A stretch of DNA of 64,000 nt from the NCBI GenBank assembly GCA_015227615.1, contig JAALGZ010000023.1, forward strand, positions 248,001 through 312,000, written 5' to 3'. Position numbers and translations under genes: made by a program. This document shows, piece by piece, positions 9,002 to 37,616 of the stretch; the stretch's first letter is position 1, and each line of letters begins with the position of its first letter. Source of the stretch: Labyrinthula sp. Ha (taxonomy: Eukaryota; Sar; Bigyra; Labyrinthulida; Labyrinthulaceae). The notes beneath the pieces were generated by a model. The model made no database searches. It saw only the letters and a program-made list of their open reading frames with translations, and was not told where the DNA came from.

Positions 9002-9127
9002 TATATTAAATATAATATATCGGCATATCGATAACTTACGGTATATACTATGACACAAATAAATACATAAAATTTCAATACCGTTACTTATCGATACAAC
9101 AGAGATCTACTACCGGTAAATATTCCC
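9002..9127. promoter_or_regulatory. Short divergent promoter region
   Basis: 126 bp separate the start codons of the WW-domain gene (minus) and the beta-helix/RING gene (plus), so both promoters must lie here or inside the genes. It contains two ATCGAT boxes and the palindrome TACCGGTA at 9111-9118, about 10 bp before the plus-strand ATG. The plus-proximal half (from about 9085) is preserved almost exactly upstream of the second gene copy, while the WW-proximal half has diverged there. No TATA box can be assigned in such AT-rich sequence. Confidence 0.5.
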
Positions 9128-11896: not shown

Positions 11897-12616
11897 GAAG
11901 AATGGAGCAACGATTCTGTACCAAGCAATGATGGAAAAATCTCTTTCGTTGGAAATTACTTTTATAAAAGGGCTTGTCAGTCTGGAGAACTGGAATCGTT
12001 GCTTCCAAAGCATATAAGAAAAGAAGTCACAGAATCCTCTGGGAATCTAGACAGAAAACGCTTCTTAGAAGTAGTTGAGTTACTTCCACTCGATGAACAG
12101 GAATCTCAAAAGTTTCTAGGAGACTTAGCTAAAAATCTGATGAGCTGGATTGCAAGTGTTACTAGAAGCAGGTTGCGTCTAGTGAACTTCAGTGCTTGCC
12201 CTACCTTCACCAGAAATATAGTCGATGAGTTAAAATCATATTCAAGACAAAACTTCTTAATATCAGAGTTGAAGATAGAAAGCTATAAACTTGATCGGTT
12301 CAACAGAAAAGATAACTGTTCTGAACGTAGATGGGCTGTTCACCCTTGCCAGTTATCTGAGTGCTTTGACATTGTAAATTCAGGCCAACTCAAGACTTTT
12401 GATCTTTGCGCTGGAGATAAGATCTCACAGGAGAAAGGTATTGTGTTATACAGCAGCTTAAAGTACATTTATAAGAATTTCTATGACAGTGACACTTTTA
12501 GTGCATATGTCATACTTGAAATTGTATTGTCAGAGATTCAACATCTTGGAGAAGCTAAATTCGGATGTAAATCAGATGATTATGTTGTTCGAAATCTTAT
12601 ATTTGAATGGTATTAA
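11897..12616 (+). other. In-frame continuation after the TAG, copy 1
   Basis: Directly after the TAG at 11894-11896 the same reading frame runs on for about 240 codons to TAA. Its composition looks coding (for example LPLDEQESQKFLGDLAKNL and FDLCAGDKISQEKGIVLYSS). There is no ATG near its beginning; the first comes about 80 codons in, so independent initiation is unlikely to explain it. Either the TAG is read through, or it is a stop that cut a once longer protein of about 1160 residues. No domain is recognised. An AATAAA motif overlaps the final stop and another follows at about 12676, so transcription probably ends after this segment. The second copy has the same layout. Confidence 0.6.
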
Positions 12617-12742
12617 TAAACTCTTATTATCCACTTAAGTTGAAACTATTGAACACATTGGCTCTCTCTCTCTTTGTAAAATAAAGACTGATAGAAGATT
12701 ATTCTTCTTCCTTTCTTTGTTCTCAAGAAAATGGTTCTTAGT

Positions 12743-12838
12743 TTTTGTTTCTGTTTATTTTGTTCAAGAATTAAAGTATGTCTGGTATTCTAAACTAACT
12801 CCAGAATACCAACACTAACTAATAATATATATACAACA
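12743..12838 (-). repeat. LTR of the old copia element (3' LTR in sense)
   Basis: Shares its core (TGTTCAAGAATTAAA at 12761, through the final AACA) with the repeat at the other end of the element. It is shorter than its partner because a segment is absent. The TTAGT target duplication abuts its left side. Confidence 0.75.
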
Positions 12839-15800
12839 TCTTCTCTAGTTAGTGGTGGTATACTTTATTATTAAGAGCATTTATTTTATTTCTTTGGAGT
12901 ATTTTAGTCATTACATCAGCAAGGTTTTCTTCAGTTATAATATAGATCAACTTTGCTTTCATGGCTTCAAGCTCTTACTTTGCAAACTGAAAACGGGTAT
13001 CTAAATATTGATTTCTTCCAGCAGCAGTTTCATTCAATGTAATCCTTATATCAGGTTGATTGTCAACATATAAAAACATCAGAAAATATTTATTAAGGCT
13101 ACATAAACTAATAAATATTCCTTTCAATTTGCGGAGGGCTAAACTAATTCCGTCATATTAAGCTTCGGTAGAGTTATTTACAACAACATGTTCAAGTTTA
13201 GATCTAGCAGTAATTAAATTGTCGTTCGGAAGAAAAATAAATTCTTAAACAGAAAGAATTCCAAGTCCATTTGCAAATGAACTATCCACAAAGATCTTTA
13301 AATCATTAGTAAGGTTTAGAGTATCGTATTTGAAAACCAAATTCTTTGTGTCAAATAAATATCGCAAGGTTCTACGCACTTCAGATAACATGTCAGCGGT
13401 AGGAGCAGACATATATCTGGAAAGTATATGTACAGCTTAAGCCACTTCTGGTCTTTCATGTTGCGTTACATAATTAATAATAACGACAACTTGTTTGTAT
13501 TGCTTCTTGTTAAATAATATTTTGAAGGAATCGCTATTGAGTTCATTAGCCAATGGGGTGGTGAGTTTATTCTTAGATACTTCAAGTTGATGGCGAATAA
13601 ATCCTCTTGTAAAATGGTGAGCAACTGATGATAAGCTAGACTGTCCAGAAGTAAAGAGTTTTAATGCAACGTAGGTATCAGCTACAAGAATGAATTTCAG
13701 CTGAAACTTGCTTTCCATAAACTTTTCAAAAATATTTATCATATCATCTGTTCCGGCGCATAGTAAATCATCAACATGAATAAGAACTATTATCTTCATT
13801 CTTTCCCCATTGATAAAAAGACATCGTTCATTCATTGACGCCTTCATTTTAAGCTGCTCCAGTACAGTGGTGAATGTTCCATGCCAAAATTTTGGCGCTT
13901 GCCTTAGACCATAGATACTTGTCGCCGTCTTCCATACTAACGTGTTGTTTTCTTCTTTTTTATGTTCTTTTGGGAGTCCAGGATAAATAGGTTCGTGAAG
14001 ATGACCATAAATAGAAGCTGCTGTTATGTCTATTTATCTCATCCATATACTGAAGCTTAAAGCAATTATAATAAAGATTTGTATTGTTTGAATTGGAGCG
14101 ACGGGCGCGTAGAAGAGTAGTTACTTCGTTGTGTTGCATCGCTCGAGCAAATGCGGGCTTTGGCGACCCAATCACCTAGCAAGTTTTTCTTGCATCTAAA
14201 TACTTCAGTCAATGGGCTTACTATAATATCAGTAGGGGTCTCGGTACAATATCAAAAGATCCGATTTTTTCAATACTATCGATTTATTTTTGATAGACAT
14301 CATACCATAATTTAGCATCAGATCTCGATTTGATACTATGATAACTTCTTGGCGGAATTGTGGAATCAGCTATAGTAGAATTTACTTCTAAATTTAGAAC
14401 TCGTTGCTCCCTATTTCGCTTCTCATGAATAATATTCTTAGGCGTAATATTGAAGTCACCAATTCTATTTTTTTATCAGAAATAGAAGAAGATGAAACTG
14501 GAGTAAAAGACGGAGCTAAATTGGAATTTGGCTCCTCTGCCTTCCCTGGTTTATGATTTTCGTCGCTTTCCTCACTAGAGTCAACAAAATCGATTGTAGG
14601 GGCATCTTTTTCAAGTAGAGTATCATCAAGTTTTCTTCTAATGTTATAGGCGGATGCTTCAAGTTTATTGGTATTTTTTAAGAATTTGGATGTAGTATCA
14701 ATGAAGTGTTCATAAGTTGAGGTAATAGTTCCAATTTCGTCAAGTGTTATAGTTCTTAAACGTTTAACTTTTTTTTATTCTTGGGTCGAAACATAAATGG
14801 GCGAGAGAAGTTTGATCACGGCTAAGATAAACTATTGGAGTAGTCCTAGAGAATTTATCCTTCTTCGTAGATGAAAGAGCGTATCCACGAGATCCAAACA
14901 TTCTAATGCTGTTTATCAGTGGTTTTTTATTGAACACAGTTTCATAAGGTGAGTAGTCTTTCTTTTTTATAATATTATTTAGGATTCATCAGCTGTGAAG
15001 TAGGCAGTAGCACCAGAGCTTGGTAGATACTTTAGCCTGAGCTCGAAAGGTTCTAACCATGAACATAGCAGTTCTATTGTAGCGTACGACTTTGCCGTTT
15101 GCAGTTGAAAAGTAGATGTTGATGTACTCACTTTTTATCCCCTTTTTGTTACAGAGAGAGAGTCTAAACTTGAGAATTCAGTTCCATGATCCGAGAATAT
15201 ACACTTTACTCGTGTGTTATAATTCTTTTTTATCTTTTTCAGAAGTTTTATAATTTTCCAGAGATATTTGATTTGGACTTGGTTAATATTATAGTGATGA
15301 AGTTAGAGTAGTTGCATACCAATAAAGATATGTATTTATAGCCTTGAATAGAAGTATGAAGAGAACCCATAGTATCGACGTGAAGTTTTAAGAAGGGTGC
15401 AGCTTCCTTAATATTCTGGAGCTGTCATAGTTGATGGTTTTCCCTTTTTAGCGTCAGTAAATTTGTCAGCAGCGCAGACAAGACAGTACAACTGTTTCAT
15501 AGGTTGGACTCCTGTGCGTTCTAAATATAAGTTAATGACATGTCCAAGACGGTAGTGGGATAAGTCGGATGGCGAAATATTGAGAAAGTTTATACAGATG
15601 TTGTTCTTATTTTTTAACATAGCGTGCAGGAAAAAATGGTTACTTTTTCAAAACAAGTTGGATATGGTGAGTACATTTTCCTAAATAGTGATATTTTTAG
15701 GTCCTTTGATAATATTCATTACATCGTCCATCAGCTTTGTTTCGGATATGATGAGATATTTTTTTGGTTTGGAACACAAGTTACGTTTTGGAGAAGTAGA

Positions 15801-17738: not shown

Positions 17739-20610
17739 TATATCAAATTACTCACCATTCACTTGTTGAGTAAAAACCATGGAGAATGGTAAATCTTTAT
17801 AATGATCTTAACCAGGAATTATTCCCTTCTCTTAACTTCTCTAGTTAAGAACTTAATCAAGTCTAGAAGTCTGCAATCTATATAAGCTTTTTATTTTTTT
17901 ATGAAATCCGATTATCAGAGCAGCTTGAATATTCAATCCCTAAAATTTTGTTGCATTTTTCAACATAGTTTGTTAAAAAATTCTGAGGCTTCCAGCAGAT
18001 TAATTAACATATTAACTATTGACGAGGGATGAAGCTGTGGTCATAATCATGTTTTCATTCTTGATTGACACCTTAGAAAACAAGGAGAATAAAGAGAAAA
18101 CAAGAACTATTCATTTATAGTCAAGGAAATAAACTTAGTCTCTTAAAAACATGACTATATCAACTTGCTATTAAACTAGTTTCATTAGAAGATAATAGAC
18201 AGTTCTTTCATAATCTTTTATTCTTTTCAAACTTATTCAAACGGCATAAAGGATCCTTATGCCTATCTAAGTTTTATATAAAGGGATTCAACAACTTGTA
18301 ATAGATTTGTACCATACTTGTTTCAAACAAAACCAATACAAGATACTAAGCATAATACTAGTACGAAACTAGTGATATGATTATGAATAATCTATAATAT
18401 ATTCTATGAAGTATTTGAGAATAAATTAGCTGAATAAAAGAAATTATAAATTTCATTGAATAATGGAAAAGTTGTAGATCTATAGTTATTGTAGCATATA
18501 TATATATATACGGAGTAGATATTCGAATAGAGTATAATGAAATTAGCTGGGCGATCTTGGACTACAAAAACATCATAGGTACGATTGATTACGAAGCAGG
18601 CTTGAATAAACTTTAGTCAATATAGTAATATCGGGTTTCCCGGAGAATATATCCGTGTTGTAGCTTAAATAACGAAGTATTTGTTCCGTTTTAACCCAAG
18701 CAAGTAGGAAATTTAATTATAATTTAATAATTAGCAAAGAGATAGAGTGCAATGAAAAAAATGACGTTTCCTAGATGAGTACCTAAAGATTTTTGCTCAT
18801 CATCGTATCCAAATATGTGGAGAAATTTAAGATTTTCAATGCAAATGTTGCAAGGAACCTACCAATTTATTTTTTTTTGTTCAATAATGGGCAGAGAAAG
18901 GCTTTATATAAGAATAGAAAGTTATTTCTTTTGAAAAAAAATCTGATGAATAAATTGATTAAGACAATTCTATTGATAATGTAGTAATAGAGAGAACCTT
19001 TCTTAAAGATGTTCTTTTTTCCTCTAAGCAGTAGAAGATAAGTATAAAAATATCTCCAGTGTACTTTCTATTTGTCATCAAGAGAGGTTAGGCCATTTAA
19101 TAAATAAAATTACCAATATTATTCGCAAAAAAGACCAATACACAAATGTTGTTATATAGTGAATTTTTCTATGTTATATCTTCCGCGACTCTAGCCACCA
19201 GAATAGAAATACGTCTATTTCTTTACCAAGACAATTCATAATATTTAAGAAATCAAAAAGATAATTATGTTCCTTTTCACACTTTGTTCTTCCTTTATTG
19301 TCAACAATTAGTTTATGAATAGGAATTCTACTTAAATATAACCAGTCCATAAGCGATTTTCTATTTATATTTCTAGTATGGTATAGCTGTTCTATATTCA
19401 TAGGAAACAGTTTTATTATTCTCAAGAAAAAGTACTGATTCTACTCAGACATTTTCTGAAAAACATAAATTTACTTTGATTGAATAATTTTATTTCAGCT
19501 TTCGGTGGTCATATTTCTTTTCGAGATTATATGTTAATCATAATTTCATCTTAGGCTATACTCTCTTTCAAGTTTAATTCAGTATTTTCTTATGGTTTTT
19601 ATTTGAATCTCATAGAAATTATTGCTTGAAGAGCACAGCGGAAAGTAATATTATTAACTTCAATTGTTGAATAATGGGCATCTTTAAATTCTGGAATACC
19701 AAGAATTTCTTTCAAAGAACAATAACTGGTGCCATCACGTTTGTTCTATAGCTCTGTTTCTCTAGATTAACTTCGTTTCGTGCAAATTAAAAAAAATCTA
19801 TGGAAATAATCTAATCTATCAATAATTTATGTTTTCTAAGGATAACAGTTTGTTTGAAATATAGCTGATACCCAATTTGAATTCTTAGAACCCAAAGTAC
19901 TATTTTCTTAGGGCATCTTCACCATAAATGATAACTAAACTAGAATTTTGAATAAAATTACTCTATAATTCTATTGCTAGATTTCTTAAATGATTTGAAA
20001 GGTATTTTTGAAATTATTTTAGCTCCGTTTTTGGCGAGAAAGACACAGAAAAACTAAAGATATTTATCTTTTAATCGGGTCAACTTAGCCATACTTGGGA
20101 CTTGATTCTAATCTATTTGAAATAAAGTACTTAAAGAGAAAGTCGAAACAGCCATACTTTTGAATATCTAGCTCGTGTAATAAACTTAGTACTTTGGCTA
20201 CATATATATGTACCTGTTATTTCAAATCCATAAGAAGATTCCTTTGCATAGAATTGAGTTACACAAGATATACGCTCCTCCAAATATACCAAATATCTTT
20301 TGGGTTGGTTAGATTATTTTCACCTACTAGGAAAACAGAGAAATCGCAATTAATTTCTACCTCTCAATCAGAATAATTTCTTTCTATAATTAATACATGA
20401 TATACTGTTTGATCCATTTCAATAATTATTATTCTAACATAAACTCGAATAAAATACATTCCTTGATAATTGGTCAATAATTTTTAGCTTTACCAATAAA
20501 TCCTCTACTATCTCATATTCACACTTTTGAGTATACATCTACCTAGTAAGAAATGGCGTTTATTCAATCATAAAATCTACTCAAAGACTTTTTTGAGAGT
20601 TACATACTAT
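17739..20610. other. Duplicated flank followed by unassigned sequence
   Basis: 17739-18108 is the continuation of the duplicated 3' flank split by the copia insertion. From 18108 to 20610 I see only short open frames (for example 63 codons at 18793 and 83 codons at 19425 on the minus strand) with no recognisable domain. This is probably decayed repeat or unconstrained intergenic DNA. Confidence 0.5.
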
Positions 20611-21046
20611 TGAGTACGTCTAGTTCTCAATTTACACTTCTAATTTTTATTTCTTCCTTTTCTCCTTGGTTTCTTAAAACTATTGTAAAACTTCTTATCT
20701 ATACTTCTTAAGGCTTAAAAAACTTACTAAAAATTATATTCAGCAAACTACAGTCCGTGTTCGATCATAGCTAAAACTGTATTTCACCAAACTACGTCAT
20801 CAGATTTTTCTCTTCCGTTAACTTCCAATATGACATTACCACCGATTTTATATTTCTAATAACGTCCATTTCCTTTAAATCTAAACAAGCTTACATTTTC
20901 CCACAAGAGCTCCGCTTGGCTCTCAACAAAGGTTCGGATATACCTCACCCACTTAACTAACATCTATATTTATATTTCAATCACTAGAGGTCAGAACATC
21001 AGCTCTTTCTCATACATTTACAAACCAAAACTAACTTATTTCAACA
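20611..21046 (-). repeat. 3' LTR of the Ty3/gypsy element
   Basis: 436 bp, pairing with 27918-28353 at about 99.3% identity. Reads TGTTGA...GTACTCA on the minus strand. The methyltransferase frame ends only 9 bp from its edge, so the purine-rich priming tract lies largely within or beside the end of that gene. Confidence 0.97.
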
Positions 21047-21055
21047 CTGCTTTCT

Positions 21056-21619
21056 TTATAAGCTCGATGCTCCATCTAAACCGATAGTACACCAACCCTC
21101 ACGATAATTCCATCTTCTCCCAAACAATTCTAAATATCTAGCGCCAGGATTTAGTCTTTCAAGCAGTTGATAAACCTCATCTGGCTTCCTACTTTGTTGA
21201 CGAACTTTACTCATTATTACATCTCCACTTCTTGATTTAGATAAAAAGGATTTTCCCTTGACTGACAACAGCAATATCTCTTTATTATGCCGCAAGAACT
21301 GTCCGTGTGAGTGCCAAAGTTTTCCGCTACTGGTCTTTGTTACCCATACCACTACTTCAACTAAACGACATCCCCAAATTTTCAAAATATCGATTCCCTC
21401 CTGCAACTTCGAATTTGTCACCCACAAAGCTACAACTCCAACAGGACAGAGCTCATTAACGGGGATCTGCTTCACTTGGTCTACTTTAATCGTTGGATAA
21501 GTTATTGACAACCCCCTTGTTGGATTTGACGACACTCCATCATCCCAAGCAGGATCAAGTAAAACAACATCATATTTACCTACTACCTCTAAATCCAACT
21601 TCAACACATCTGAAACCAT
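21056..21619 (-). CDS. MT-A70-type N6-adenine methyltransferase carried by the retrotransposon
   Basis: 187 residues in one intact frame with an ATG start, lying inside the LTR boundaries. The MT-A70 family (METTL3/IME4, METTL14, METTL4) transfers methyl from S-adenosylmethionine to N6 of adenine in RNA or DNA. The family signature is clear: a YDVVLLDPAW strand with a D-P-x-W motif at residues 22-25, an LWVTN strand, IWGCRLVEVVVWVTK, a NKE motif after an FLRH segment, then KPDEVYQLLERLNPGARYLE, LFGRR and a GW...G close. Spacing and wording resemble METTL3-type catalytic domains most. It is short because it is only the catalytic core; the usual N-terminal regions are absent. It is transcribed in the same sense as gag-pol and would sit at the 3' end of the genomic RNA, 9 bp from the LTR. 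It may methylate the element's own DNA or RNA, or its target chromatin; that is inference. Family assignment is strong, activity untested. Confidence 0.9.
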   Translation of the reverse strand: MVSDVLKLDLEVVGKYDVVLLDPAWDDGVSSNPTRGLSITYPTIKVDQVKQIPVNELCPVGVVALWVTNSKLQEGIDILKIWGCRLVEVVVWVTKTSSGKLWHSHGQFLRHNKEILLLSVKGKSFLSKSRSGDVIMSKVRQQSRKPDEVYQLLERLNPGARYLELFGRRWNYREGWCTIGLDGASSL

Positions 21620-21643
21620 ATATCTACTCCTTCTGGGTTGCTT

Positions 21644-21940
21644 TCAAAAAGTAAAACATTGTTCCACTACCTTTTCCAAATCATCCAACTTATACAAATT
21701 ATCCCTTATTTCACCTACTCGAACTCCATCAAAGCAATTATTATTATCCTTCAAATATTCCGAAAACGATTTTCTATACATTCTTCTTTCTTCCTTTTTA
21801 CTCAATTCATTCTTATACAAATCCTCCCACTCTTTCAAACATTTATCTCTCAAATCATTCTCAAGAGCATTTATTTCAAAATCAACTATATTACTTCTCC
21901 CCATCAATACATCTACAGGTCTCAGTTTATATTTTTTCAA
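21644..21940 (-). other. Charged segment between the protease-like motif and the methyltransferase
   Basis: An open minus-strand region of the Ty3/gypsy element, rich in Lys, Asp, Glu and Asn (KLRPVDVLMGRSNIVDFE near its start, LDDLEKVVEQCFTF at its end). No domain is recognised. It might be the tail of the protease-like domain or a leader for the methyltransferase. Confidence 0.5.
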
Positions 21941-22215
21941 AACTTTCTCTCATATTATTATTTTATCCATTGATCTCTTTAGCACATATAAACACACCTT
22001 TCCCAAGTTCATTTTTATTCTAGGATGTATCAATTTAATCTCCTTCCAAACATACCCTATTATCTCTAATCTTTTCCCACTTACACCATATACATTACTT
22101 AACTTTACCAACTCTTCCCCCTCAACTTGCAATTCAGATGAAGATATCATATTTATTCCTATGCAAATAATTCCCGCTCCACTGTCAAGCAACACCTTAT
22201 ACCACTTATTCCCAA
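21930..22215 (-). other. Retropepsin-like domain of the Ty3/gypsy element
   Basis: The hallmark VLLDSGAG, followed by an I-C-I-G stretch and a later hydrophobic DKIII region, matches a retroviral-type aspartic protease. In standard Ty3/gypsy elements the protease lies between gag and reverse transcriptase; here it follows the integrase, which is unusual. I see no other DSG/DTG protease motif in the gag-RT interval. Confidence 0.65.
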
Positions 22216-22594
22216 TTTTTGATTTAAAACTATCTTTTGGCCAAGTTACTTCTGCTGCATTATCTTCAATATGATTCACCGATTCTCTAAACTCCTTCTC
22301 TATCTTGAAGTCCTTTATAAAGTTTATCATCTTTTTTATATCCTGAAGTTTAAGACGTGGATTGTTTACATCTGCTACATTTAAAACTGGAATTTCAATA
22401 GAATTTCTATCACCTTGCACCTCAAACTTTTTCTTATAAAATTCCCTTTCCTTACTCAATTCAGATGTTGATCTCTCCTTCCCAGTTCGCACAATAACTC
22501 CACTACGTCTATAAACATTCTTCAAACTATCATTATATTCTTTGATCTTATCAAACTTTACTTTCAACATTCTATATACCCCGATCGACTGACT

Positions 22595-22745
22595 ACCCAA
22601 TGATGCTTGCAATAGAGTCGCCATTTGAGACTTCGTTTTCCCAGGAAGGCAACCTAGTGAACAAATTTCTTTCCAATTTCCTATTCCAAATTTCAAACTC
22701 AATTTTTCAAATACTATCTTCTCTGCCAACGACCAACCTTTAGAT
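22595..22745 (-). other. SANT/Myb-like domain of the Ty3/gypsy element
   Basis: The segment GWSLAEKIVFEKLSLKFG, then GNWKEI and PGKTKSQM, has the Trp/helix spacing of SANT/Myb DNA- or histone-binding domains. It lies between the chromodomain and the protease-like motif. A role in chromatin or target-site recognition is inferred. Confidence 0.65.
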
Positions 22746-22929
22746 CTACTTAAACCTTCTGGCACCCCCTCTGACATCGATCTTATTCTACTTGGATATT
22801 TAATTATTTTTATCCTCTCTTTCAACCAGATATTTTTAGGTACAGTGCTTACACTTTCTGCAATCATATTTACCTCTTTGCTACCCTTATTTCTTTCCCA
22901 TTCTCTGATCAATTTATGAGCATTTTCAA

Positions 22930-24395
22930 AATCTATGGTATCGTCTTTATTTTTCCTTACAAACTCTTTTACTAATTGGGGTACATCCTCGTAAAGTCTA
23001 CGCATGCATTGCCAATTTGAATCACTTTTTTGGAAATTCTTGCCACCAAATCAACACCTCAAATCCATCTATTGTATTTCTCAAATCTAATAACTTTTTT
23101 ACATAATAAGGTCCCTGGTTATAATAAAAACTATGTTTTATCTCTGAGGTTATCTTAAAGTCTTCAGATTTTGACTGATATAGAACCATCCGTTGTGAAT
23201 GTACTACTTGCTCCTTACCCCCAATAGACTTTACTTTATAACAATGTTCACCTTCAACTGCTACTACTATATATGGTTCAATCCATCTCAAACTTATTTT
23301 ATCATTTAACCATGGTGTACCTACTCTAGATATCAATACAAAATCTCCAGCCGCAAAATTTACACTTGACGATCTGAATTTAGCATTGATATATTTTCTC
23401 GACCTGTCTCTGCTTTCTTTAATAATAGGCTCTACTATATTTCTCCTATTCAAAATTGTTTGCATCAACTTTTCTACGGCTGACTTAAACTTCCTAGGAT
23501 CCTTACATTCTCTAAGTTTTCCTTGAGTCACTATTGGCAGGATGTTTATCTCATCAGTTTCTACTATTTTATTCAACCCTCTTGCAGTAGATAAATATGT
23601 GGTCAACTCATTTGGAGAATACCCATGACGTGAACGGCTGTTATTTATAACATCCATCACTTGGGGTAATAACTCACTCCATTTTTCTTTCTCAATCATG
23701 TAACAACTACACAGCTGGCGAAGAACTCGGAGAACGAACCTATTCATCACTTCGATTGATCCGTTACTCCAAGGGCTGTATACTATTGAAAATTTATGCT
23801 CAGCTGGAAACCGTGACTCAAAGGTTTTTAACACTTCGTTGTTAAAATGAGAACCATTGTCCGATACCAAAGTGAATGTGGGTGGCAATCCTATTAATCC
23901 CCTCCACATTACCAATGCCCTTACAACTACTGCTGCACATGGACTGGGATCTTCTATTAACAACACTTTCCTTGACACATCTTCCAATATAACCAAGATG
24001 TATGATTCTTTTACTTTCAAAAAATCTAGATGTAGCACCACCTCTCCTTTAATAGGGTGATATATTTCCCCCAATAGTCTACGAATCATTTTTATATCTT
24101 TATCACAATGCAAACACCATTTCTTCAAATTTTGTGCTAAAATTTTTTGTTTATTTCTAGGTATATTGACGAAAAAGAAGGGTTCTAAAATACACATAAC
24201 TTCATCCACACTGCCATGCCATGAAGCATTATGAGCCGTAACAATGAAGCGTTCAATAAGCTCTCCAGGTATAATTATTTTTCCTTGCTTATTGATCCAG
24301 GCTCCTGACTCGTTTTGGGATGCATCTAAATCCTTCAGATTTAATTCACAAGCTCCTTGGACCTTTACTATTTCTGGAATGGTAAGAATCTTCAT
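22930..24395 (-). other. Integrase with C-terminal chromodomain (Ty3/gypsy element)
   Basis: The zinc-binding HHCC module is seen as AHNASWHG and KWCLHC. The catalytic core has D in HLDFL, D in VSDNGSHF and E in NGSIEVMNR. A GPY/F-like module (RWIEPYIVV) follows. A chromodomain-like stretch then appears (YYVKKLLDLRN, FEVLIWWQEFP, and further on the helix EDVPQLVKEF), which places the element with the chromoviruses. Chromodomains of such elements can direct integration to particular chromatin. Confidence 0.85.
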
Positions 24396-24398
24396 TTC

Positions 24399-26450
24399 CT
24401 ACTTTCTTTTAGGGAAATGAACAGCAACTCTATTTTCCACGAACTTTACTACCTCTGGATCAAACCTCCAACTAGTGCTCTTATTCACTTCTACTTCCAA
24501 CACCTCTTCACCTTCAGGCCCATCAATCATGTTAGCAATCTCCATCTTTTCAACGTCAACATCTCCACTATTCGCAAAAAATGTTATTCCTTTCCATCGA
24601 ATTCTCCAACCCATATCCCCATTGCTGTCTACGAGTTTTGTCTTCAAGTTCAAAGTATCCTCCGACTCCACATATCCCCACCTCGTCAACAGATCCGCCA
24701 GAACATTAGTTTCTCCTGGAAGATGATGAAGCACCGTGACGAGTTCTTGGATGGTGAGTATCCATCTTTGAACCCGCCCAAACGCAGCAGCTTTCATGTC
24801 CTTTTTTGGTGTCATCAGGTATATCAAATTTTTGTGATCTGTATAGAGTTCAATGGGTGTTTGATGGCCATACAAGATGAATCTATACCTTTTCATTAAC
24901 TCAATGATAGGATAGATTTCCTTGTCAGTCATGCTCCAATGAATACTACTTCCTACAAACTCTCCACTTCCAAAATAAATAGGTAATCACCCGTCGCTGT
25001 CCCACAGTCCAAGTACTCCTGACCAGAACTGGAAACTTGCATCCGTGAATATAGCCACCCTCTTATCAAGCTGGTACAACTTTAAACTATTGGCCGCACT
25101 AGAAGAGATGGACTTCAAAAATTTGCGAACATCATCCTGATCCTCCTCACTCCAACACTCTTCCACCGATGCAGCTCTTCGTTGATGCTTATTTAGCTTC
25201 TTTTTATATTTTATTTTTAGATCCCGTTCAAGCTCCTTCATTCTCTTACTAAGGTAGTGACGTTTCCTTGCTAAATCTGGTACGCTGGAAGCTAGCCATG
25301 TGCTCACATAGACCAAATCTTCCAACTGATCCATCTTCCTCACCTCCCCTATATGTTCCAACTTCAAAAAATATTTCTCATCATATCTCCATCTCCCGTT
25401 CTCCAAGATTCTCCCACACCATCCCACTCTACTTTTAATCAAGTCGCATTTATCCAGGTTCAGACGAAAATTCACCTTGATACAGTGGTTTAAAAACTGG
25501 GAAAGAATATCCTTGTATTCTTTCCAGGATGAAGCATAGATCAGTGAGTCATCGATCCACTGCAGGACCCCGTTACCGAACAAGCTATCCCTATTCAGAC
25601 CTCCCAGGACTTGGTTGATCAACCTCTCCTGATATATCTGGGGGGTATTTATATAACCCTGGGGAGCCATCAACATTGTATAACAGCCCCACGGAGTCAC
25701 CATCCCCAAATACTTCTGGGCTCCATCCTCCACTCTCAAATAATCAAATCCACTCAATCCATCAAAACTCCCGAAATATTTCTCAGTGCCCTTGAACCAA
25801 GCTAACTGGGTCTCGAGGTCTGGCAATCCTGCTCCAGTGGGTTTAACTGATCTGTTACACCTGCGGAGGTCGACTACCATTATATATTCATCCCTTTTTC
25901 CTAGTTTCGGCACCATAATTACAGGCGAAGAAAAGAAAGGATTTGGCTCCCTCCTAATCATCCCCATGTCTTCTAATTCTCTTAATTTTTTCTTTAGGGC
26001 CTCCATGCTGACTTTGGACATTGGGTAAGGTTTGCTTACATACTCCGCGACCCCTTCACGTAGCTCAATTTTCATAGGAGTAAGATTATTGAAGTCGCAC
26101 TTAGAGATTTTTGACCCAAAAGCTTCAAGATGATTTAATAAAATGGATTCCAGCTCTTGTGCTTGATCAGAGGTTATGGTTCCTTCTTTCACTCCTACTA
26201 AAACTTTTTCTCTAACTTTATTCCTTAGGTATGCCTGCACTTTATTATCAGTTACATGTGGCTTCCCTACATCTCCTCCAACTTCAAATTCATCCTCAAC
26301 TAAAACCTCCCCTAAATCCACTGGATCCAGAGATCCTACCATAAAATCCTCTGATTCATCCCCATGACTTTCTTCAAGATCCAATACTTCGACTGCTCCT
26401 ACAAATACCGACTCCTCATCCTCCGAATTGCTTTCTTCTGCCTCCAACTT
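24399..26450 (-). other. Reverse transcriptase and RNase H (Ty3/gypsy element)
   Basis: The RT region shows MVVDLRRCNRSVKP, FDGLSGFDYLRVEDG, MLMAPQGYINTPQIYQ and the catalytic box QWIDDSLIYA. RNase H follows (YGHQTPIELYTDHKNLIYL and LHHLPGETNVLADLLTR). An acidic Glu/Asp-rich leader precedes the RT. These are Ty3/gypsy-type motifs. Confidence 0.92.
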
Positions 26451-26529
26451 CTCACTACTCCTTGCTTCTTCTTCAATTTCATTTACCGTCTTCTACTTCT
26501 TAGCATCTCGCTGTTTAACCAACTTACAA

Positions 26530-27861
26530 TCGTCAAATCAATGGTTACTGGTGTAGCAGAAGAGGCACATGTTATGATCCATGCCGTACTGCTTCCTTTT
26601 TTCCTTAGACCAAGTCTTTGGTAGGAAGTGTTTTACAGATCCATCCTCTAGTGTCGTCCTTCTTACCCCTTCTGAGGGGTTTGACTCCCCTCGAGGGTTT
26701 CTTGGACGCTGCTTTGGAGCTAGATCAGACTTCACACTTATTTTATTCTTATTCTTTAGGGGTTCATTAGTCAAAGCTTCAAAGCTGGACTCTGAAGATC
26801 CCATTCCGATATGATCATGGCCGCCTTGTTCAAACCTCTTCTCAATTTTCCCACTGTCTTCCACTTCTTTATCGATTGAGTCTCTTTTGCACTTCCTGAC
26901 CCGAACTCTAAAGGCAATTTTTTGATCACCTTCAAACAGAACTCCCTCTCCATCGACTTGGTCTCCCACTTAATCCCTCTTACCATATCTGTAACTTGTT
27001 TTAAAAAGTGAGTCATGGACTTCATAGGCGTGCCCTCATTAGACCACATCAAGTTCTCTACCTTTCTCATTAGTATTTTTTCTTTTCCTTTATTTTGTAG
27101 CCGATTGATGTTATTGAGGTACTTCATTACAGACCTCCTTCTCATCACACTTACTCCCTCATCTTGCAACATCACCTGCACCTGATTGCTCAAACTTAAA
27201 GAAATATCAGCATTAGGCAGCTTCAACCTCCCTCTGACCACATTGGTCTCATGCACCTGAAATTCTTCCAAAAACGATGCCACTTTACTAGGCTCCAGGG
27301 ATCGCAATATTGGCTTTCCCTTGTACTTCTCCTCTCTCGCCCTCTTTCTCTCACTCTCTCTCAAGCCTCTGTTATCTCCAACATCATCCTCTGACTCAGC
27401 CGAACTCAAAGAAGAGGCCGAAAGATCACTACTCTCAGAATTTGAGTCCTCTACCTCCAACACATTTCTCCTCTTATCTTTGACCTTGAACAAATCCTTC
27501 CTAACTTTTTTATTGCTTCCTGTTGATATATTTGCTTTTACTTGCTGAAGTAAAGTGCTCATTTGAAGTTGCAGAGTTTCATAATTTTGCTGAAGCTGCT
27601 CCCAACTTTCGCGGGTTACTACTACATGATCCGGGGTTGTAATATTTTCTCCTGGATCAGAAACGCTCCTGTACACTTCACTGGTGTCTCGTATATCTCC
27701 TTGACTGCTATTTTACTCAACCGCAACCTGATTCAACTCCTGAGGAGTTTCCGTATCCCGGGTGATTATGTTCCTGGAACTGATTTCTGCAATCACCCTT
27801 CCTCCTAACTTTCCACCACTCTCCGATCTTAAAACCGGAGGCTCACTTCTATTCTTATTCA
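26530..27861 (-). other. Gag region of the Ty3/gypsy element
   Basis: A coiled-coil-like Gln-rich start, an acidic Ser-rich stretch (SNSESSDLSASSLSSAESED) and a basic capsid-like middle are followed by a CCHC-type zinc knuckle beginning CLFCYTSNH near 26.55 kb. Gag assembles the virus-like particle and the knuckle binds the element's RNA. Confidence 0.75.
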
Positions 27862-27917
27862 TTTTTTTTCATAACTATTATAATTCGTACTATTTATACG
27901 AATATTGGATCCAATAT

Positions 27918-28353
27918 TGAGTACGTCTAGTTCTCAATTTACACTTCTAATTTTTATTTCTTCCTTTTCTCCTTGGTTTCTTAAAAATATTGTAAAACTT
28001 CTTATCTATACTTCTTAAGGCTTAAAAAACTTACTAAAAATTATATTCAGCAAACTACAGTCCGTGTTCGATCATAGCTAAAACTGTATTTCACCAAACT
28101 ACGTCATCAGATTTTTCTCTTCCGTTAACTTCCAATATGACATTACCACCGATTTTTTATTTCTAATAACGTCCATTTCCTTTAAATCTAAACAAACTTA
28201 CATTTTCCCACAAGAGCTCCGCTTGGCTCTCAACAAAGGTTCGGATATACCTCACCCACTTAACTAACATCTATATTTATATTTCAATCACTAGAGGTCA
28301 GAACATCAGCTCTTTCTCATACATTTACAAACCAAAACTAACTTATTTCAACA
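27918..28353 (-). repeat. 5' LTR of the Ty3/gypsy element
   Basis: 436 bp, partner of 20611-21046. The 7-bp repeat ATACTAT follows immediately outside. The promoter for the element's minus-strand transcript is expected here. Confidence 0.97.
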
Positions 28354-31300
28354 ATACTATTATATCACAGTATGACATTACTGTAAATACCGCCTAACAA
28401 TTAAGCTATCAATCAAAGACACAAATGTACAAATTATTCATTGACTCGTATTTCAACAAATACTTTGAGTTAGAAGACATTATTTATATAAATTTAAAGC
28501 TCTAAACTTGAATCTTAAGCATTTGCACTTTTCTAACTACTTACTTAAACTGTTACTTAGTATACGTCTTTTTTCTCTCACTTGGTTGCGATGTAAACGA
28601 CGACGCCACAGGAGAAAGTGCGCGGAGAATCAAGTTCTCAGGATGAAGAAGCTTTTATTTTAGAGGAAATTACCCTCAAATCAAAACCAATTTTAATTAA
28701 AGGGAATGAAGTTGATCTTGATAGCTACAAGTTAGCCAGAAAACTACTTGAGAACCTCACCAAATCAACTGGAAAACACAGCTTTTCCGGCCTAAAACGA
28801 GCTGTAGAACTCTACCTTTTGGCACTATTACTAACAGTAGAAGGGAGACCTTTAAGAAATTACTTTAAAGGTTTCAAAGATCCATGATTGACGACATCAT
28901 TGAATCTTACGATCCCACCTCTCCTGGTTCTAGCACAAGAATCTACGAACTGGATGAAGATTTGGACGACAACCTGAGCGACGACCTAATTTCAATCTGG
29001 CAAAAAGACATTGAATTTTTGTCTACAGTTAGAACACCACATCGATTCAACAAGATCTTAAGAAGAATCGGTGCAAAGCATTTTCTACCTTCAGAAACAA
29101 GAAATCGTGTTGCTTTCCAGAATCTCTTACAACTAATATGGAAAGAAGAATCCCCGATCGCTGATTTCATCAAAACATTTGAGAAGTTACTACAGAAATG
29201 CAACGAAGTAGAACTTTTTCAAAACACAAAATATCAAATGATTCTGTTTCAAACGAAGATTCTACAACAAAGCTCGAGAAACAATACACTCTTTAATCTG
29301 GTGACCCATCCCGATCGAATCAAACCAGAATTACTAATGGACTACATGACTGAATTTCATCAAGAAATCCTACAAAAGAACCCCAGCGTTTTGATTCCGT
29401 TTGATGTTTCATTTCAATCAGTTGCAGCAACATCAACTAACTCAGCAGGCAAGAAAAGATCATCCAAGGTTTGTGGACATTGTGGTGAGACTAAGTCTCA
29501 CAGCAAGGAGCAATGTCCAGCCATTGGTTACAAGTGCAAACTCTGTTCCAAGATGAACCACTACGAAAAGATTTGCTCAACAAATCCAAAAAGTCCACTT
29601 TACAGACAAAGATCTTTTAGAAAATCAGCAGCAATTACTAGTACATCACAGCAGAGTAGCTTTGATCCTTTTTCCTTTGCAAGTTCACTCTCTACATCAC
29701 TTCATGAAAATTTTGCTGGACTCGACTCATGTAGCGATGTCTTCATTTTCAAAGACAAGAGATTTTTTAGGAAACTAAATCCTGACTCAACTACATTACA
29801 GCAAACAGTTGACTCTATACACAGCGCTGGTTCGGGAATTGCATGTTTTTCATTTAGAGAAGCACCTACAATGAAATTTTAGGTAAACGCATTGTACATC
29901 CCTGAAAGTGCTTTTAACATCCTGTGCAATTTTGATCTTGAAACTAGAAACATCACAGTTCAACATGGCCCTAATCCTTTCATCAACTTACCAAACGGAA
30001 AACGATTCAACGCTACATTGTTAGGTAAAAAGACTTTTGTCGAAATCCTACCACTTGGTTCGGCATCATTAGCTACTTCAGATCCTAGCATTTGGCATCG
30101 TTGACTGATGCATGTTGGATCCGACAAATTAAGAAAACTTAACTTGACAAAGAAAATTTACAAAACAGGTGGCTGTCAAACTTACATCCATTCCAAAGCT
30201 GTACAACGTCAAGTTAAAAACTTTGATCTTAACAAAAAGCATGTCCCAGTCAATGTTGGTGACACATTAGTCATGGATCTACTAATTCCTTCTAAAGCAA
30301 AAACCAAACAAATCAATGGAATCATTGCTGCAATGGTTCTAGTTGATGCAAAAAGCAGACTAGTTGAAACAACCCCAGTTAGATAAACTACCGTTAATTA
30401 CGTTACAAAAGCCTTTTTTAGATGAGTCTCAAACTTACAGATTTCACCAAAGCTTCTAGTCACTGATCGACAACCAGCCTTTACATCCTCAACATTTGTG
30501 AACAACCTCAGCACAAGAAATACTAAAATTAAATTCGTACCAAGGGAGAGACATGATATTTTTAATAGAATTGCAGAAAAAACCTTTGGTGTTCTAAAAA
30601 CAATGTCCACAGCTGGAATGATCAATGCCAAACTTGATGATTCCTTTTGGGGCTACGCAATGAACTACGCAGAATTTATCAAGAACAGATATCATCAATC
30701 GTCATTAAATGATGAGATTCCTTTTGAGAAGTATTACAAAAAAGAATCTAGAGTTAAAAATCTCAAGATCTTTGGTTCACTTTGAACTGCATTGAAAGCT
30801 AAAACCCATAGATAGAAATACCAAGAACAAGCAAATGCGCGTTTATTTTTTGAATTTCAACCTCATGCTAGTCATAACAAAGCAATCATTTGCCACTTAG
30901 AAACTGTCAAATTCATCCGTGTTAACTTAACAGACGTCTGGTTTCAAGAATTTAGCACGCATCAGGAATTCAGTAAGAATCAAAAGCTTTCCTTTGGAGA
31001 AGCCAAATTTTTGCTAAATTGCCAAAATTCTGAATCTGACGATGATGATGAAAATCTTAATCAAAATAGAGTCGATGCACATGTTGAAACGGCTCCAAGC
31101 CCTGAAAACAAAGAAAATCAAGAATTTCGAAATTTTCAAAAATCTCAAAATTTTGAACCTCAACATGAAAATTCATCTAATCTCAACGATGACGAAAATT
31201 ACACCGAAAACATACATAAGTCAGTCCAAAAGCCTTTTAATGAGCAAATTCGAGAAAATTTCATGGATCTAGAGCATGATGATCATTCTGGACATTCAGA

Positions 31301-33115
31301 TGTTGAAGTAGATACCAGTCAAAATGAGCAACAAAATGACCATGAAGAGACAGTTCCAACTCAGGAGAAGCAACTAACCAGAAAAACAGCTACAAACAAA
31401 CTCTGTTAGCAAAACCAAGAGCTAAAACCGTTACAACTAGATCTGGAATAAATGCCACAATGTTAGATCTCAGAAAAGCAACTGCTCTTACTATGAAGAC
31501 AACAGAGGATGGAACCTACAAAATTAAACCAAAAACAACTGGAGAAAAGAAAAGGTTAGAGCAAAAAATCATTGAATCAAAGTTGAAGAACCTTCCGAAC
31601 GTTTATAAAGACATTTTAGATCATCCTGAAGAAAAACTTTACTTAGAAGCAGTGCGAAAGGAAATAAACGCTCTTGAAACTAGAGGTGTCATGAAACTAG
31701 TTCCAAGGTCAACTCTTCCACAAGACGTGCTCATTGGGAAGTGTACCATGTTGGTAAAGAAGAAACGTAATGGAAAGCATAAAGCATGTTGCGTTTACAA
31801 TGCTCGAAAACAACGCTACAAAATTACTACACACCGAAGCTCACCAACACTCAATGCAGAAAGTCTAAGCGTGGCTCTCGCAATTGCTGCAAGCAGAGGT
31901 TTTGACTTTAACTCACTGGATGTCAGTACATCTTTTCTTTACGCAGATCTTCCACCAAACACGGAACTCTTTTGCGAAATTCCTGATGGTCATCCGCTAC
32001 AGCATGAAAACAAGACAATGGTGATGAGAATCTGCAAAGCGCTTTACGGATTAAAAGAAAGTCCTAAACTATGGCATGACAATGTAACAGCAAACTTACG
32101 CAATTTGGGTTTCCTTCAAGCAAAATTTGATGAATGTGTTTACTACAAACAAAACTTAATTTTACTCTTGTACGTGGATGATGTTTTGATGTTAGGAAAC
32201 AAAAACGAAATTTCAAAATTCATTAAATCATTTCAGAAGTTTTACACATGCACAGTTGGAAATCTTAATGAATCTGTGGATTTCTTAGGAGTTAACATTT
32301 CTAAAAACAGCAAAGGAGATTTTGAAATTGATCAAACTAAGTACATCAACGGATTACTGAAGAAGTTTAAACATTTAGTTGCAACACCTAAAGACACACC
32401 TCTTCCAACTACATTCAAACCACTAGTCGATCCTGAACACAAGTCAAACACGAAATTTCCTTACAGACAAATCTTAGGATCTCTCATCTACCTTAGACTA
32501 ACAAGGTTAGATTTACTTTTTGCGTTACACGCTCTTAGCAGGTACACCTAAAATGTAACCGAAGAGGTAATCAAAGCCATTAAGAACACCCTAGGTTACT
32601 TAAAACAGACAAGAAATCAAAAGAGAAGATTCTTCAATGGAACTGAAAATGTTCAAACTAAACTATTCGCATTCTGTGACGCAGAATGGGTTGCTAACAA
32701 ATTAAATCGAAAATCGGTTAGCGGAAACTTAATTTACTTAGGTCAACCTCTAGTCAGTGGGAAAAGAAAAGCACAAAGTGTTGGAGCAACCTCAGCTGCA
32801 AGTGCCGAGTTGACGGAGATTCAATCAACAGCTAAGCAATTACATGGAATTGTAGGACTTTTCGAGTAGTTACATTTGGAATTTGATTCTTCAACTGTAA
32901 TCCTCACTGATTTCAAAACATGCGTTAGTACATTAGAAAAGCCAGTCAGCGCAAAGCAAAACATTTAAGTGTTCAGATTCATTTCTTGAAGGATTTGATT
33001 AAAGAAAAGAAACTGAAAGTGGTTTACGTAAAAAGAAATTTCAACATTGGTGATTTACAAACTAAACAACTGACCAAAGCCGATTTCAAAAGGCTTTTGA
33101 AACAAGCAGTTTGAA
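28354..33115 (+). mobile_element. Ty1/copia LTR retrotransposon, broken
   Basis: Plus-strand copia element with all main parts in order: gag (about 28.6-29.6 kb) ending in two zinc knuckles (CGHCGETKSHSKEQC and CKLCSKMNHYEKIC), protease (LDSCSDVFIF, about 29.7 kb), the gag-pre-integrase motif WHR...LMHVGSDKLRKL (about 30.1 kb), integrase (30.2-30.8 kb), an Asn/Glu-rich spacer, reverse transcriptase (31.5-32.55 kb, with SLDVSTSFLYADL and YVDDVLML) and RNase H (about 32.6-33.1 kb, FAFCDAEWVANK). It is broken in roughly eight to ten places. I could not pair its LTRs by eye. The Ty3/gypsy element sits at or just before its 5' end and may have landed in its 5' LTR. Confidence 0.88.
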
Positions 33116-37000: not shown

Positions 37001-37470
37001 ATTTACTGGGGACATACCTGCGAGTAGTCAGACACTCATTTATGAGTCGCAGAAACTAACAGAAGTGCTAGGTTAAGGTACTGATATGATTCCGGCTGTA
37101 TTCCGCTAGATAATGCGTAATAAAACACAAATAAGTCTTGTGAGGCGAATTCAAATACCCGAAAAGGTTGAAAGGTATTAATTAAATTCTTGCATAAATA
37201 ACTTAGGCTATATCCCAAGTTTTGTTACTCGAATGAATCTTTTGGTTTTGCTATTACCTAAATAAGATAGGTCTTTTTCTTTTTGTTGTTTTGCTTATTT
37301 AGTTTATCTGAGCATAATTGGCTATACCTTAATTTCCCAGAATATTGTATTACTCTTGATATTGATAACAAATATCGATAACCAATAACTGATAAATCTA
37401 CAACTACTTTGTTAACATTAATATTTCATATATTAGCTTAGTATGCTTCAGATTAATATACACATCTGTT
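37001..37470. other. Extra segment inside duplication copy 2
   Basis: About 470 bp present only in copy 2, between the coding remnant and the start region of the WW pseudogene. It is flanked by similar CTTTTTGTTGTT-type stretches (near 36990 and 37285). No coding content or terminal repeats are clear. It may be a small non-autonomous insertion or a diverged replacement. Confidence 0.4.
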
Positions 37471-37616
37471 TCTCTCGAATGCTTCGACATTCTACAAAGT
37501 ATTAGTTGACTTCATACCATTAACTATCGGTATATATTATCACACAAATAAATAGATAAAATCTTAATACCGTTACTTATCGATACAACAGAGATCTACT
37601 ACCGGTAAATATTCCC
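37471..37616. promoter_or_regulatory. Upstream region of the beta-helix/RING gene, copy 2
   Basis: Corresponds to the divergent promoter of copy 1. The last ~45 bases, including the TACCGGTA palindrome at 37600-37607 and an ATCGAT box, are identical to copy 1. Further upstream the two differ at many positions. The WW gene on the other side is dead here, so this promoter is now one-sided. Confidence 0.5.

What the first reader, a model, noticed from the sequence alone, without database searches (positions are those of the whole stretch)
20611..28353. Young Ty3/gypsy element carries an MT-A70 adenine methyltransferase
Seen: an intact 187-codon frame with MT-A70 hallmarks (D-P-x-W, NKE, KPDE...PGA, LFGR, GW) lies inside two 436-bp LTRs, in the same sense as pol, and stops 9 bp from the 3' LTR. 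Known: some eukaryotic retrotransposons have captured cytosine methyltransferases (described in dinoflagellates and charophytes), and MT-A70 enzymes make N6-methyladenine in RNA or DNA. Inference: this element acquired a METTL3-like catalytic core that could mark its own RNA or DNA, or change silencing of new insertions. I know of no described chromovirus-type element with this cargo, but could not search.
Basis: partly seen in the sequence, partly recalled or inferred. Interest (0 to 1): 0.92.

Follow-up and report, generated by a model that had tools for sequence, protein, structure and literature searches.

The report
Retrotransposons carrying a DNA-adenine methylation module
In a single-celled eukaryote, a large and diverse group of jumping genes carries, at the end of its main protein, look-alikes of two parts of the machine that writes the DNA mark N6-methyladenine, which raises the testable idea that these elements mark DNA, perhaps their own, to stay active.

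Summary
In detail: an LTR element at 20608-28353 (minus strand; 439-bp LTRs, 4-bp target duplication ATAC) carries an MT-A70 domain (Pfam E 3.5e-36) ending 9 bp from the 3' LTR. The window copy is decayed: two frame changes and seven in-frame stops break its gag-pol. The domain is no one-off. I listed 205 MT-A70 places in the genome; of 20 high-scoring loci fetched, 19 are LTR-flanked, and the twentieth is the host's own AMT1. Five loci read gag-to-MT-A70 as one open frame of 2278-2363 codons, with LTR identity up to 100%. The domain is under strong purifying selection (dN/dS 0.05; RT 0.04). The main new point: 128 of 150 MT-A70 domains have a Myb-like domain 0.7-1.5 kb upstream (control 1 of 150), whose best solved relative is p1, the DNA-binding subunit of the AMT1/MTA1 DNA-6mA complex. 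So the elements carry p1-like plus AMT1-like domains: a likely DNA 6mA writer rather than a METTL3 core. A metagenomic relative has the same layout. In the window's clade the protease lies after the chromodomain. Catalysis, substrate and benefit are inferred; the window clade has DPAW instead of DPPW. I saw no published precedent in my literature searches.

The parts
20604..20607 (.). target-site duplication ATAC, left copy
20608..21046 (-). 3' LTR (439 bp)
   Evidence: 99.3% identical to the other LTR, 3 mismatches
21047..21057 (-). purine-rich stretch next to the 3' LTR (AAAGAAAGCAG), likely polypurine tract
   Evidence: sequence; same stretch before the 3' LTR in the 7 relatives printed before the script stopped
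21059..21643 (-). open stretch with AMT1-like MT-A70 methyltransferase domain (domain 21077-21574); C-terminal domain of the polyprotein in better-preserved copies
   Evidence: PF05063 E 3.5e-36; AlphaFold model of this stretch pLDDT 85.3, matches MTA1 and METTL3
21743..21862 (-). helix-rich linker before the methyltransferase
   Evidence: long helix predicted at the matching place of relative L050, in a model of low overall confidence; no significant match to the AMT1 N-terminal region
21953..22231 (-). retropepsin-like protease (DSGA motif), located after the chromodomain
   Evidence: coordinates; profile of the region in relatives matches ASPRV1 E 3e-5; aligns with the upstream protease of P0127
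22505..22828 (-). p1-like Myb/homeobox-like domain (core 22529-22747)
   Evidence: family profile matches p1 (AMTP1) E 1.9e-20
22958..23126 (-). chromodomain, interrupted by a frame change in this copy
   Evidence: coordinates; Chromo hits in relatives: L050 1.2e-5, L031 9.4e-4, L034 0.0047
23772..24035 (-). integrase core (rve)
   Evidence: E 4.3e-6, below the curated cut-off
24744..24983 (-). RNase H
   Evidence: PF17917 E 5.4e-15
25413..25868 (-). reverse transcriptase (RVT_1)
   Evidence: E 3.9e-13
26541..27712 (-). gag region in two frames, with the start of a zinc knuckle at 26541-26567
   Evidence: full CX2CX4HX4C knuckle seen in L034
27915..28353 (-). 5' LTR (439 bp); TGGATCC... just inside it is a possible primer binding site
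28354..28357 (.). target-site duplication ATAC, right copy

Best explanation
A large, diversified group of Ty3-like LTR retrotransposons carries, as the C-terminal part of Pol, a DNA-6mA writing module: a p1-like DNA-binding domain followed by an AMT1-like MT-A70 methyltransferase. Shown by sequence: the architecture, its repetition, its selective maintenance and its kinship to p1 and (less firmly) to AMT1. Inferred: after polyprotein processing the module binds double-stranded DNA, most likely the element's own cDNA or new insertion held by the integrase-chromodomain complex, and methylates adenine (perhaps at ApT), alone or with host AMT1-complex partners such as p2 and AMT6/7. Because AMT1-made 6mA marks transcriptionally permissive chromatin in many protists (PMC12695648, passages), the likely benefit is to keep new insertions expressed.
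For: Module position: 128 of 150 MT-A70 hits have a p1-like domain 714-1524 bp upstream on the same strand, against 1 of 150 downstream or on the opposite strand. With ciliate p1 itself as query, 122 of 150 scored hits have MT-A70 downstream; with a generic Myb model, 0 of 89. p1 kinship: 1.9e-20, 75.6 bits over 81 ungapped positions, against at best 23.3 bits for a single domain of the next protein. AMT1 kinship: L034 133.8 against 104.4 bits for METTL3. P-x-R-G insertion: 117 of 118 cellular AMT1-like rows and 29 of 31 element rows (the other two have one letter changed); METTL3 has a gap there. Selection: dN/dS of MT-A70 0.05, p1 domain 0.10, RT 0.04, gag 0.04 (L050 against L045); window's clade 0.09-0.30 in the 19 pairs with dS over 0.1. 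MTA1 residues D209, S332 and R357 that contact SAM are invariant in 46 rows and N360 is at 90% or more (roles from passages of PMC9852454). Layout found again in metagenomic P0126.
Against: No activity, expression or methylation data. The window's clade has DPAW, not DPPW. Other SAM-contact residues are not kept: N370 in none of the 6 element rows, E371 in 2 of 6, D182 in 4 of 6 (by eye). MTA1 needs p2 to bind SAM (PMC9174199, passages); I did not search for p2 in the elements. No significant match to the AMT1 N-terminal region that binds p1 and p2. The DNA-binding lysines of p1 are only partly kept (by eye). The tree leaves the origin open: element branches are very long, and METTL3 joins one element clade with 88/84 support, flagged as a possible long-branch join. 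For L050 METTL3 scores as well as MTA1, and the fold does not separate the two. 22 of 150 MT-A70 hits have no listed p1-like hit in place.
Confidence: 0.6

Rival explanations
1. The MT-A70 domain works on RNA like METTL3: it m6A-marks the element's own genomic RNA to favour packaging, translation or evasion of RNA surveillance.
For: L050's domain scores METTL3 and MTA1 alike; one element clade joins METTL3 in the tree; Gag and RT handle RNA.
Against: The AMT1-type P-x-R-G insertion and a p1-like domain; p1 is reported to co-occur exclusively with AMT1 (PMC12695648, passage). The METTL3 join is flagged as a possible long-branch join.
Confidence: 0.15
2. The module is not a productive writer: it binds DNA or host AMT1-complex partners and blocks or redirects host 6mA (decoy or dominant-negative), most likely in the DPAW clade.
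For: DPAW in the window's clade; an eroded motif (NALW) marks the non-catalytic partner MTA9 (PMC9852454, passages); some SAM-contact residues changed (by eye); no match to the AMT1 N-terminal region.
Against: The other families aligned keep DPPW, apart from P0003 with NPPW; key SAM-contact residues are kept; constraint equals that on RT.
Confidence: 0.12
3. p1-like domain and chromodomain serve mainly to choose integration sites (linker DNA near active genes); methylation is secondary.
For: Both lie after the integrase; AMT1-made 6mA marks linkers near transcription start sites (PMC12695648, passages).
Against: It does not explain why the methyltransferase domain is as constrained as RT.
Confidence: 0.11
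4. A one-off capture, host gene fragment or assembly artefact.
For: The window copy itself is broken and its MT-A70 stretch stands alone.
Against: 19 of 20 fetched loci LTR-flanked, 4-bp duplications in 14 of 16 loci, uninterrupted long frames, metagenomic relative P0126, host AMT1 only 37% identical.
Confidence: 0.01

Closest known systems
MTA1c / AMT1 complex (AMT1/MTA1, MTA9 or AMT6/7, p1, p2), the eukaryotic DNA-6mA writer
   Same: MT-A70 domain with the AMT1-type P-x-R-G insertion and several SAM-contact residues; p1-type Myb domain
   Different: The p1-like and AMT1-like domains are fused in one retrotransposon polyprotein; window clade DPAW; no match to the AMT1 N-terminal region; p2 and AMT6/7 not looked for
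Retrotransposons with cytosine DNMTs (dinoflagellates, charophytes; PMC5890265, abstract start and passages)
   Same: A retroelement that carries a DNA methyltransferase domain
   Different: Adenine-type MT-A70, not C5-cytosine; accompanied by a domain like a DNA-binding subunit of the same host complex
DIRS elements with Dam-like methylase (PMC5890265 and PMC6338049, passages)
   Same: A retroelement with an adenine methylase domain
   Different: DIRS Dam is bacterial-type and, as recalled, DIRS use a tyrosine recombinase; here MT-A70 and a DDE-type integrase
Chromodomain-bearing Ty3 elements (chromovirus-like)
   Same: RT-RNase H-integrase-chromodomain order, LTRs
   Different: Adds p1-like and MT-A70 domains; in the window's clade the protease lies after the chromodomain
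ParB-methyltransferase gene in a brown-algal Sola1 DNA transposon, similar proteins cited for green and red algae (PMC12477816, passages)
   Same: A mobile element with a DNA-binding domain plus a methyltransferase predicted to make 4mC or 6mA
   Different: DNA transposon, separate gene, domains typically prokaryotic

Membership tests
Ty3/gypsy-type LTR retrotransposon | LTR pair with target-site duplication | tested here: met
   439-bp LTRs, ATAC duplication; 14 of 16 loci tested with 4-bp duplications
Ty3/gypsy-type LTR retrotransposon | RT-RNase H-integrase order | tested here: met
Ty3/gypsy-type LTR retrotransposon | protease between Gag and RT | tested here: not met
   Window clade: no Pfam hit upstream of RT in the frames scanned; retropepsin-like domain after the chromodomain. 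P0127 of the same genome has it upstream (residues 410-509); P0126 shows no protease hit
Ty3/gypsy-type LTR retrotransposon | RT phylogeny inside Ty3/Metaviridae | not tested
   no RT tree built; hence 'Ty3-like'
Chromovirus-like elements | chromodomain after integrase | tested here: met
   Chromo 1.2e-5 in L050, just above the cut-off; weaker in L031 and L034
AMT1/MTA1 methyltransferase | catalytic DPPW | tested here: not met
   Window clade has DPAW; most other family rows have DPPW
AMT1/MTA1 methyltransferase | P-x-R-G insertion after DPPW, absent from METTL3 | tested here: met
   29 of 31 element rows; 117 of 118 cellular rows; gap in METTL3
AMT1/MTA1 methyltransferase | SAM-contact residues | tested here: inconclusive
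   D209, S332, R357 invariant and N360 90% or more of 46 rows; N370, E371 and D182 lost in some or all element rows (by eye)
AMT1/MTA1 methyltransferase | placement inside AMT1 in a tree | tested here: inconclusive
   long branches
AMT1/MTA1 methyltransferase | N-terminal helix that binds p1 and p2 | tested here: inconclusive
   no significant profile match
AMT1/MTA1 methyltransferase | 6mA activity on ApT DNA | not testable with these tools
   needs enzyme assay
p1 (AMTP1) | p1-type homeobox-like domain | tested here: met
   1.9e-20; reverse test with ciliate p1
p1 (AMTP1) | DNA-binding lysines K44, K46, K47 | tested here: inconclusive
   partly kept, compared by eye; role from PMC9852454, passages
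p1 (AMTP1) | C-terminal helix-turn-helix that binds AMT1 | not tested
   the profile stops at p1 residue 100
METTL3 (RNA m6A) | no P-x-R-G insertion | tested here: not met
   29 of 31 element rows have it
METTL3 (RNA m6A) | N-terminal CCCH zinc fingers | not tested
   no METTL3 zinc-finger test was run
DIRS-Dam retrotransposon | tyrosine recombinase instead of DDE integrase (recalled) | tested here: not met
   rve hit in the window and relatives, no recombinase hit

The most novel reading that the evidence does not exclude
An old lineage of LTR retrotransposons acquired two working parts of the eukaryotic 6mA writer (AMT1 catalysis and p1 DNA binding) as a fused, self-contained module, radiated with it into many families, and uses the host's mark of active chromatin to mark its own DNA, so that new insertions stay expressed.
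Probability: 0.35. Interest if true: 0.94.

Novelty: new variant of a known kind. Interest (0 to 1): 0.87.

Why it matters
Retroelements with cytosine DNMTs and with bacterial-type Dam are known. In my paper searches no title, abstract start or passage that I saw describes one with a eukaryotic MT-A70 writer; I opened seven papers, each by passages only. [quoted passage not shown] here the domain stands at about 200 places in one genome and in diverse families. AMT1-made 6mA goes with transcription rather than silencing, so the system makes a clear question testable: can a transposon write an activating DNA mark? The p1-AMT1 fusion may also be a compact enzyme for biochemistry, since the ciliate complex has four subunits.

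Tried and rejected
Reading TGA as a sense codon: the window's pol frames end often at TGA, which suggested a recoded genome; rejected because relatives read through the same places as one open frame of 2278 codons, so the window copy is simply decayed.

One-off capture or assembly artefact: rejected. The single fetched locus without LTRs, L037 at C91, is the host AMT1 (E 3.7e-73 to Tetrahymena MTA1).

METTL3 as the obvious parent: weakened, not excluded. A 50-row tree with one METTL3 row did not resolve the origin; I chose those 50 from 152 domains. AMT1 N-terminal region: no significant match. The fold of the L050 C-terminal 704 residues was poor (pLDDT 47.8) and I did not search it. Relatives of P0126 in viral contigs: 28 stretches matched a pattern, none a relative. 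Protein search with the C-terminal part of L034 found one hit, the EukProt model P0001. Generic Myb model: 89 hits, 0 with MT-A70 downstream. Host naming rests on AMT1 alone: the named labyrinthulomycete proteins P0006 (Mucochytrium quahogii) and P0027 (Hondaea) are 65% identical, several unnamed environmental rows 64-67%, most other listed rows lower, with a loosely supported group in the tree; hence 'perhaps a labyrinthulomycete'. The rRNA search did not complete three times and I did not repeat it.

Limits: scored of candidates were 150 of 354 for PF05063, 100 of 629 for RT, 40 of 55 for the LTR, 122 of 447 and 150 of 419 for MT-A70 queries, 150 of 330, 321 and 317 for p1, so counts are lower bounds. 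27 of 100 RT hits had neither a listed p1 nor a listed MT-A70 downstream; some may lack the module. dN/dS pairs with dS under 0.1 in the window's clade scatter up to 0.83, and pairs across its two subgroups were saturated.
Full report
WHAT IS IN THE WINDOW. The element lies on the minus strand at 20608-28353. Its LTRs are 439 bp with 3 mismatches, flanked by the 4-bp duplication ATAC. The frames give RT (RVT_1 3.9e-13), RNase H (5.4e-15), integrase (rve 4.3e-6, under the cut-off) and, last, MT-A70 (3.5e-36). The stop lies 9 bp from the 3' LTR. Compared with L034 in three pieces, this copy has two frame changes and seven in-frame stops, so it is young by its LTRs but not intact.

IT IS NOT ALONE. 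The window is part of a 50.8-Mb genome of 153 contigs. PF05063 gave 150 scored hits of 354 candidates; my joined list holds 205 distinct places, the host AMT1 included. Counting by eye in the table, 25 of 150 hits lie in a frame of at least 1900 codons without a stop inside the match. I fetched stretches of up to 10 kb for 20 of the first 21 hits, the window's own left out. 19 of 20 have an LTR pair, 80.9-100% identical; the twentieth is the host AMT1 gene. Five loci have one open frame of 2278, 2333, 2333, 2358 and 2363 codons. 14 of the 16 loci tested, the window included, have a perfect 4-bp duplication; I left out L035, L042, L043 and L046 (cut or diverged LTRs) and L037.

ARCHITECTURE. 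Pfam on open copies reads RT, RNase H, integrase, chromodomain, then MT-A70 at the end. Between chromodomain and MT-A70 I saw a Myb-like stretch. A profile of it from eight rows, including metagenomic P0126, hit PDB chains of p1, the homeobox-like subunit of the ciliate DNA-6mA complex, at 1.9e-20 with 81 ungapped positions; the next protein, SNAPC4, reaches 2.8e-13 by summing several Myb repeats, none above 23.3 bits. p2 appears at 0.0047. The reverse test agrees. Ciliate p1 searched against this genome gave 150 scored hits of 317 candidates; the best two (C100:136075, C1:1284467) are not near any listed MT-A70 and are candidates for host p1, while 122 of 150 have MT-A70 0.2-3 kb downstream. 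A generic Myb model found 89 hits, 0 with MT-A70 downstream. From the MT-A70 side, 128 of 150 have a p1-like hit 714-1524 bp upstream on the same strand, against 1 of 150 on the wrong side or strand; 22 have none listed. RT hits lie 3.0-7.0 kb upstream of 66 of 150, with only the top 100 RT hits of 629 candidates in hand.

A MOVED PROTEASE. In the window's clade no protease hit lies upstream of RT in the frames scanned. A retropepsin-like stretch (DSGA ... I-x-G) lies between the p1-like domain and MT-A70; Pfam alone sees it weakly (0.032 to 0.14). A profile of it, which included the P0127 protease as one of six rows, matches ASPRV1 at 3e-5 and Ddi1-like proteins at 0.03. P0127, from another family of the same genome (its MT-A70 part is identical to C113), has the protease in the usual place (residues 410-509), and the two align. 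P0126 shows no protease hit. The simplest reading is relocation within the window's lineage.

WHICH MT-A70. The window's family (L034) scores Tetrahymena MTA1 at 133.8 bits, METTL3 at 104.4, METTL14 at 41.8 and the 'Methyltransferase-like protein 2' chain 7cv6 at 34.9. L050 gives 112.4 against 110.9, and with the bare domain 109.8 against 111.3 in favour of METTL3. The P-x-R-G insertion after the catalytic motif is in 117 of 118 cellular AMT1-like rows and 29 of 31 element rows, while METTL3 has a gap there. A model of the window's own domain (pLDDT 85.3, pTM 0.85) matches MTA1 first in Foldseek, but by Z MTA1 and METTL3 are tied (23.9 and 23.6). In the tree the elements do not nest in cellular AMT1 and their branches are very long; METTL3 joins one element clade with a warning. 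So AMT1 kinship rests on the insertion, the p1 partner and the window family's score, not on the tree.

IS IT KEPT? Between two open copies, L050 and L045, dN/dS is 0.05 for MT-A70, 0.10 for the p1-like domain, 0.04 for RT, 0.04 for gag, 0.21 for protease and 0.32 for the linker before MT-A70. In the window's clade, the 19 pairs with dS above 0.1 give 0.09-0.30 for MT-A70, although DPPW is DPAW there. D209, S332 and R357 of MTA1 (SAM contacts, PMC9852454, passages) are invariant across 46 aligned rows and N360 is at 90% or more. Against this, of the six element rows, none keeps N370, two keep E371 and four keep D182 (by eye).

ELSEWHERE. The RT search of the protein collection gave 26 hits. 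Four have both RT and MT-A70 domains (P0122, P0123, P0126, P0127); P0126 is from an ENA metagenome contig, RT 38% identical, with Myb 5.4e-5 and MT-A70 6.6e-30, and the other three are EukProt models, taken to be of this species. P0125 (37%) has no MT-A70; whether it is cut short I cannot tell. The host AMT1 is 65% identical to Mucochytrium and Hondaea proteins over about 62% of its length, so the host may be a labyrinthulomycete; this is not established.

MECHANISM. Papers, read as passages only: p1 is a homeobox-like protein required for MTA1-complex activity and thought to bind DNA (PMC9852454); p2 activates SAM binding by MTA1 (PMC9174199); p1 and p2 co-occur exclusively with AMT1, and AMT1-made 6mA goes with permissive chromatin (PMC12695648). 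The most likely reading is a DNA-6mA writer that acts on the element's own DNA during or after integration. DNA as substrate, own DNA as target and anti-silencing as benefit are inference. Dependence on host p2 and AMT6/7 is likely but untested. Rivals are RNA methylation, a decoy of the host complex, and integration targeting.

NOVELTY. Known: cytosine DNMTs in retroelements (PMC5890265, passages), Dam in DIRS (same, and PMC6338049, passages), a ParB-methyltransferase in a brown-algal DNA transposon (PMC12477816, passages). My searches for MT-A70 or AMT1 with retrotransposons showed no such element in titles, abstract starts or the passages I read; I did not open most of the papers listed, and most subscription papers and all preprints are outside that library. 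I recall that Iyer, Zhang and Aravind (BioEssays 2016) surveyed adenine methylases in eukaryotes; I did not look it up, and it may mention mobile elements.

Noticed in passing
8980-12743 and 37469-41232: A 3764-bp direct duplication, 99.2% identical, about 28 kb apart, holding a 941-codon frame with a beta-helix region and a downstream frame.
   Followed up: partly
31346-32551 (+) and 13437-14033 (-): Two Ty1/copia-type RT remnants (RVT_2 8.1e-30 and 5e-21); the first lies about 3 kb from the element.
   Followed up: no
window clade (L031, L034, L045, L050) against P0127: The aspartic protease lies after the chromodomain in one clade and before RT in another family of the same genome.
   Followed up: partly
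G000 C100:136075 and C1:1284467: Two p1-like frames not near a listed MT-A70, best matches to ciliate p1; candidate host p1 genes.
   Followed up: partly
RT hits such as C132:1429713, C46:72071, C66:1085390: 27 of 100 RT relatives have no listed p1 or MT-A70 downstream; they may lack the module and would serve as natural controls for a 6mA map.
   Followed up: no
window clade MT-A70, 21077-21574: DPAW instead of DPPW at the catalytic motif, yet the domain stays under constraint.
   Followed up: partly
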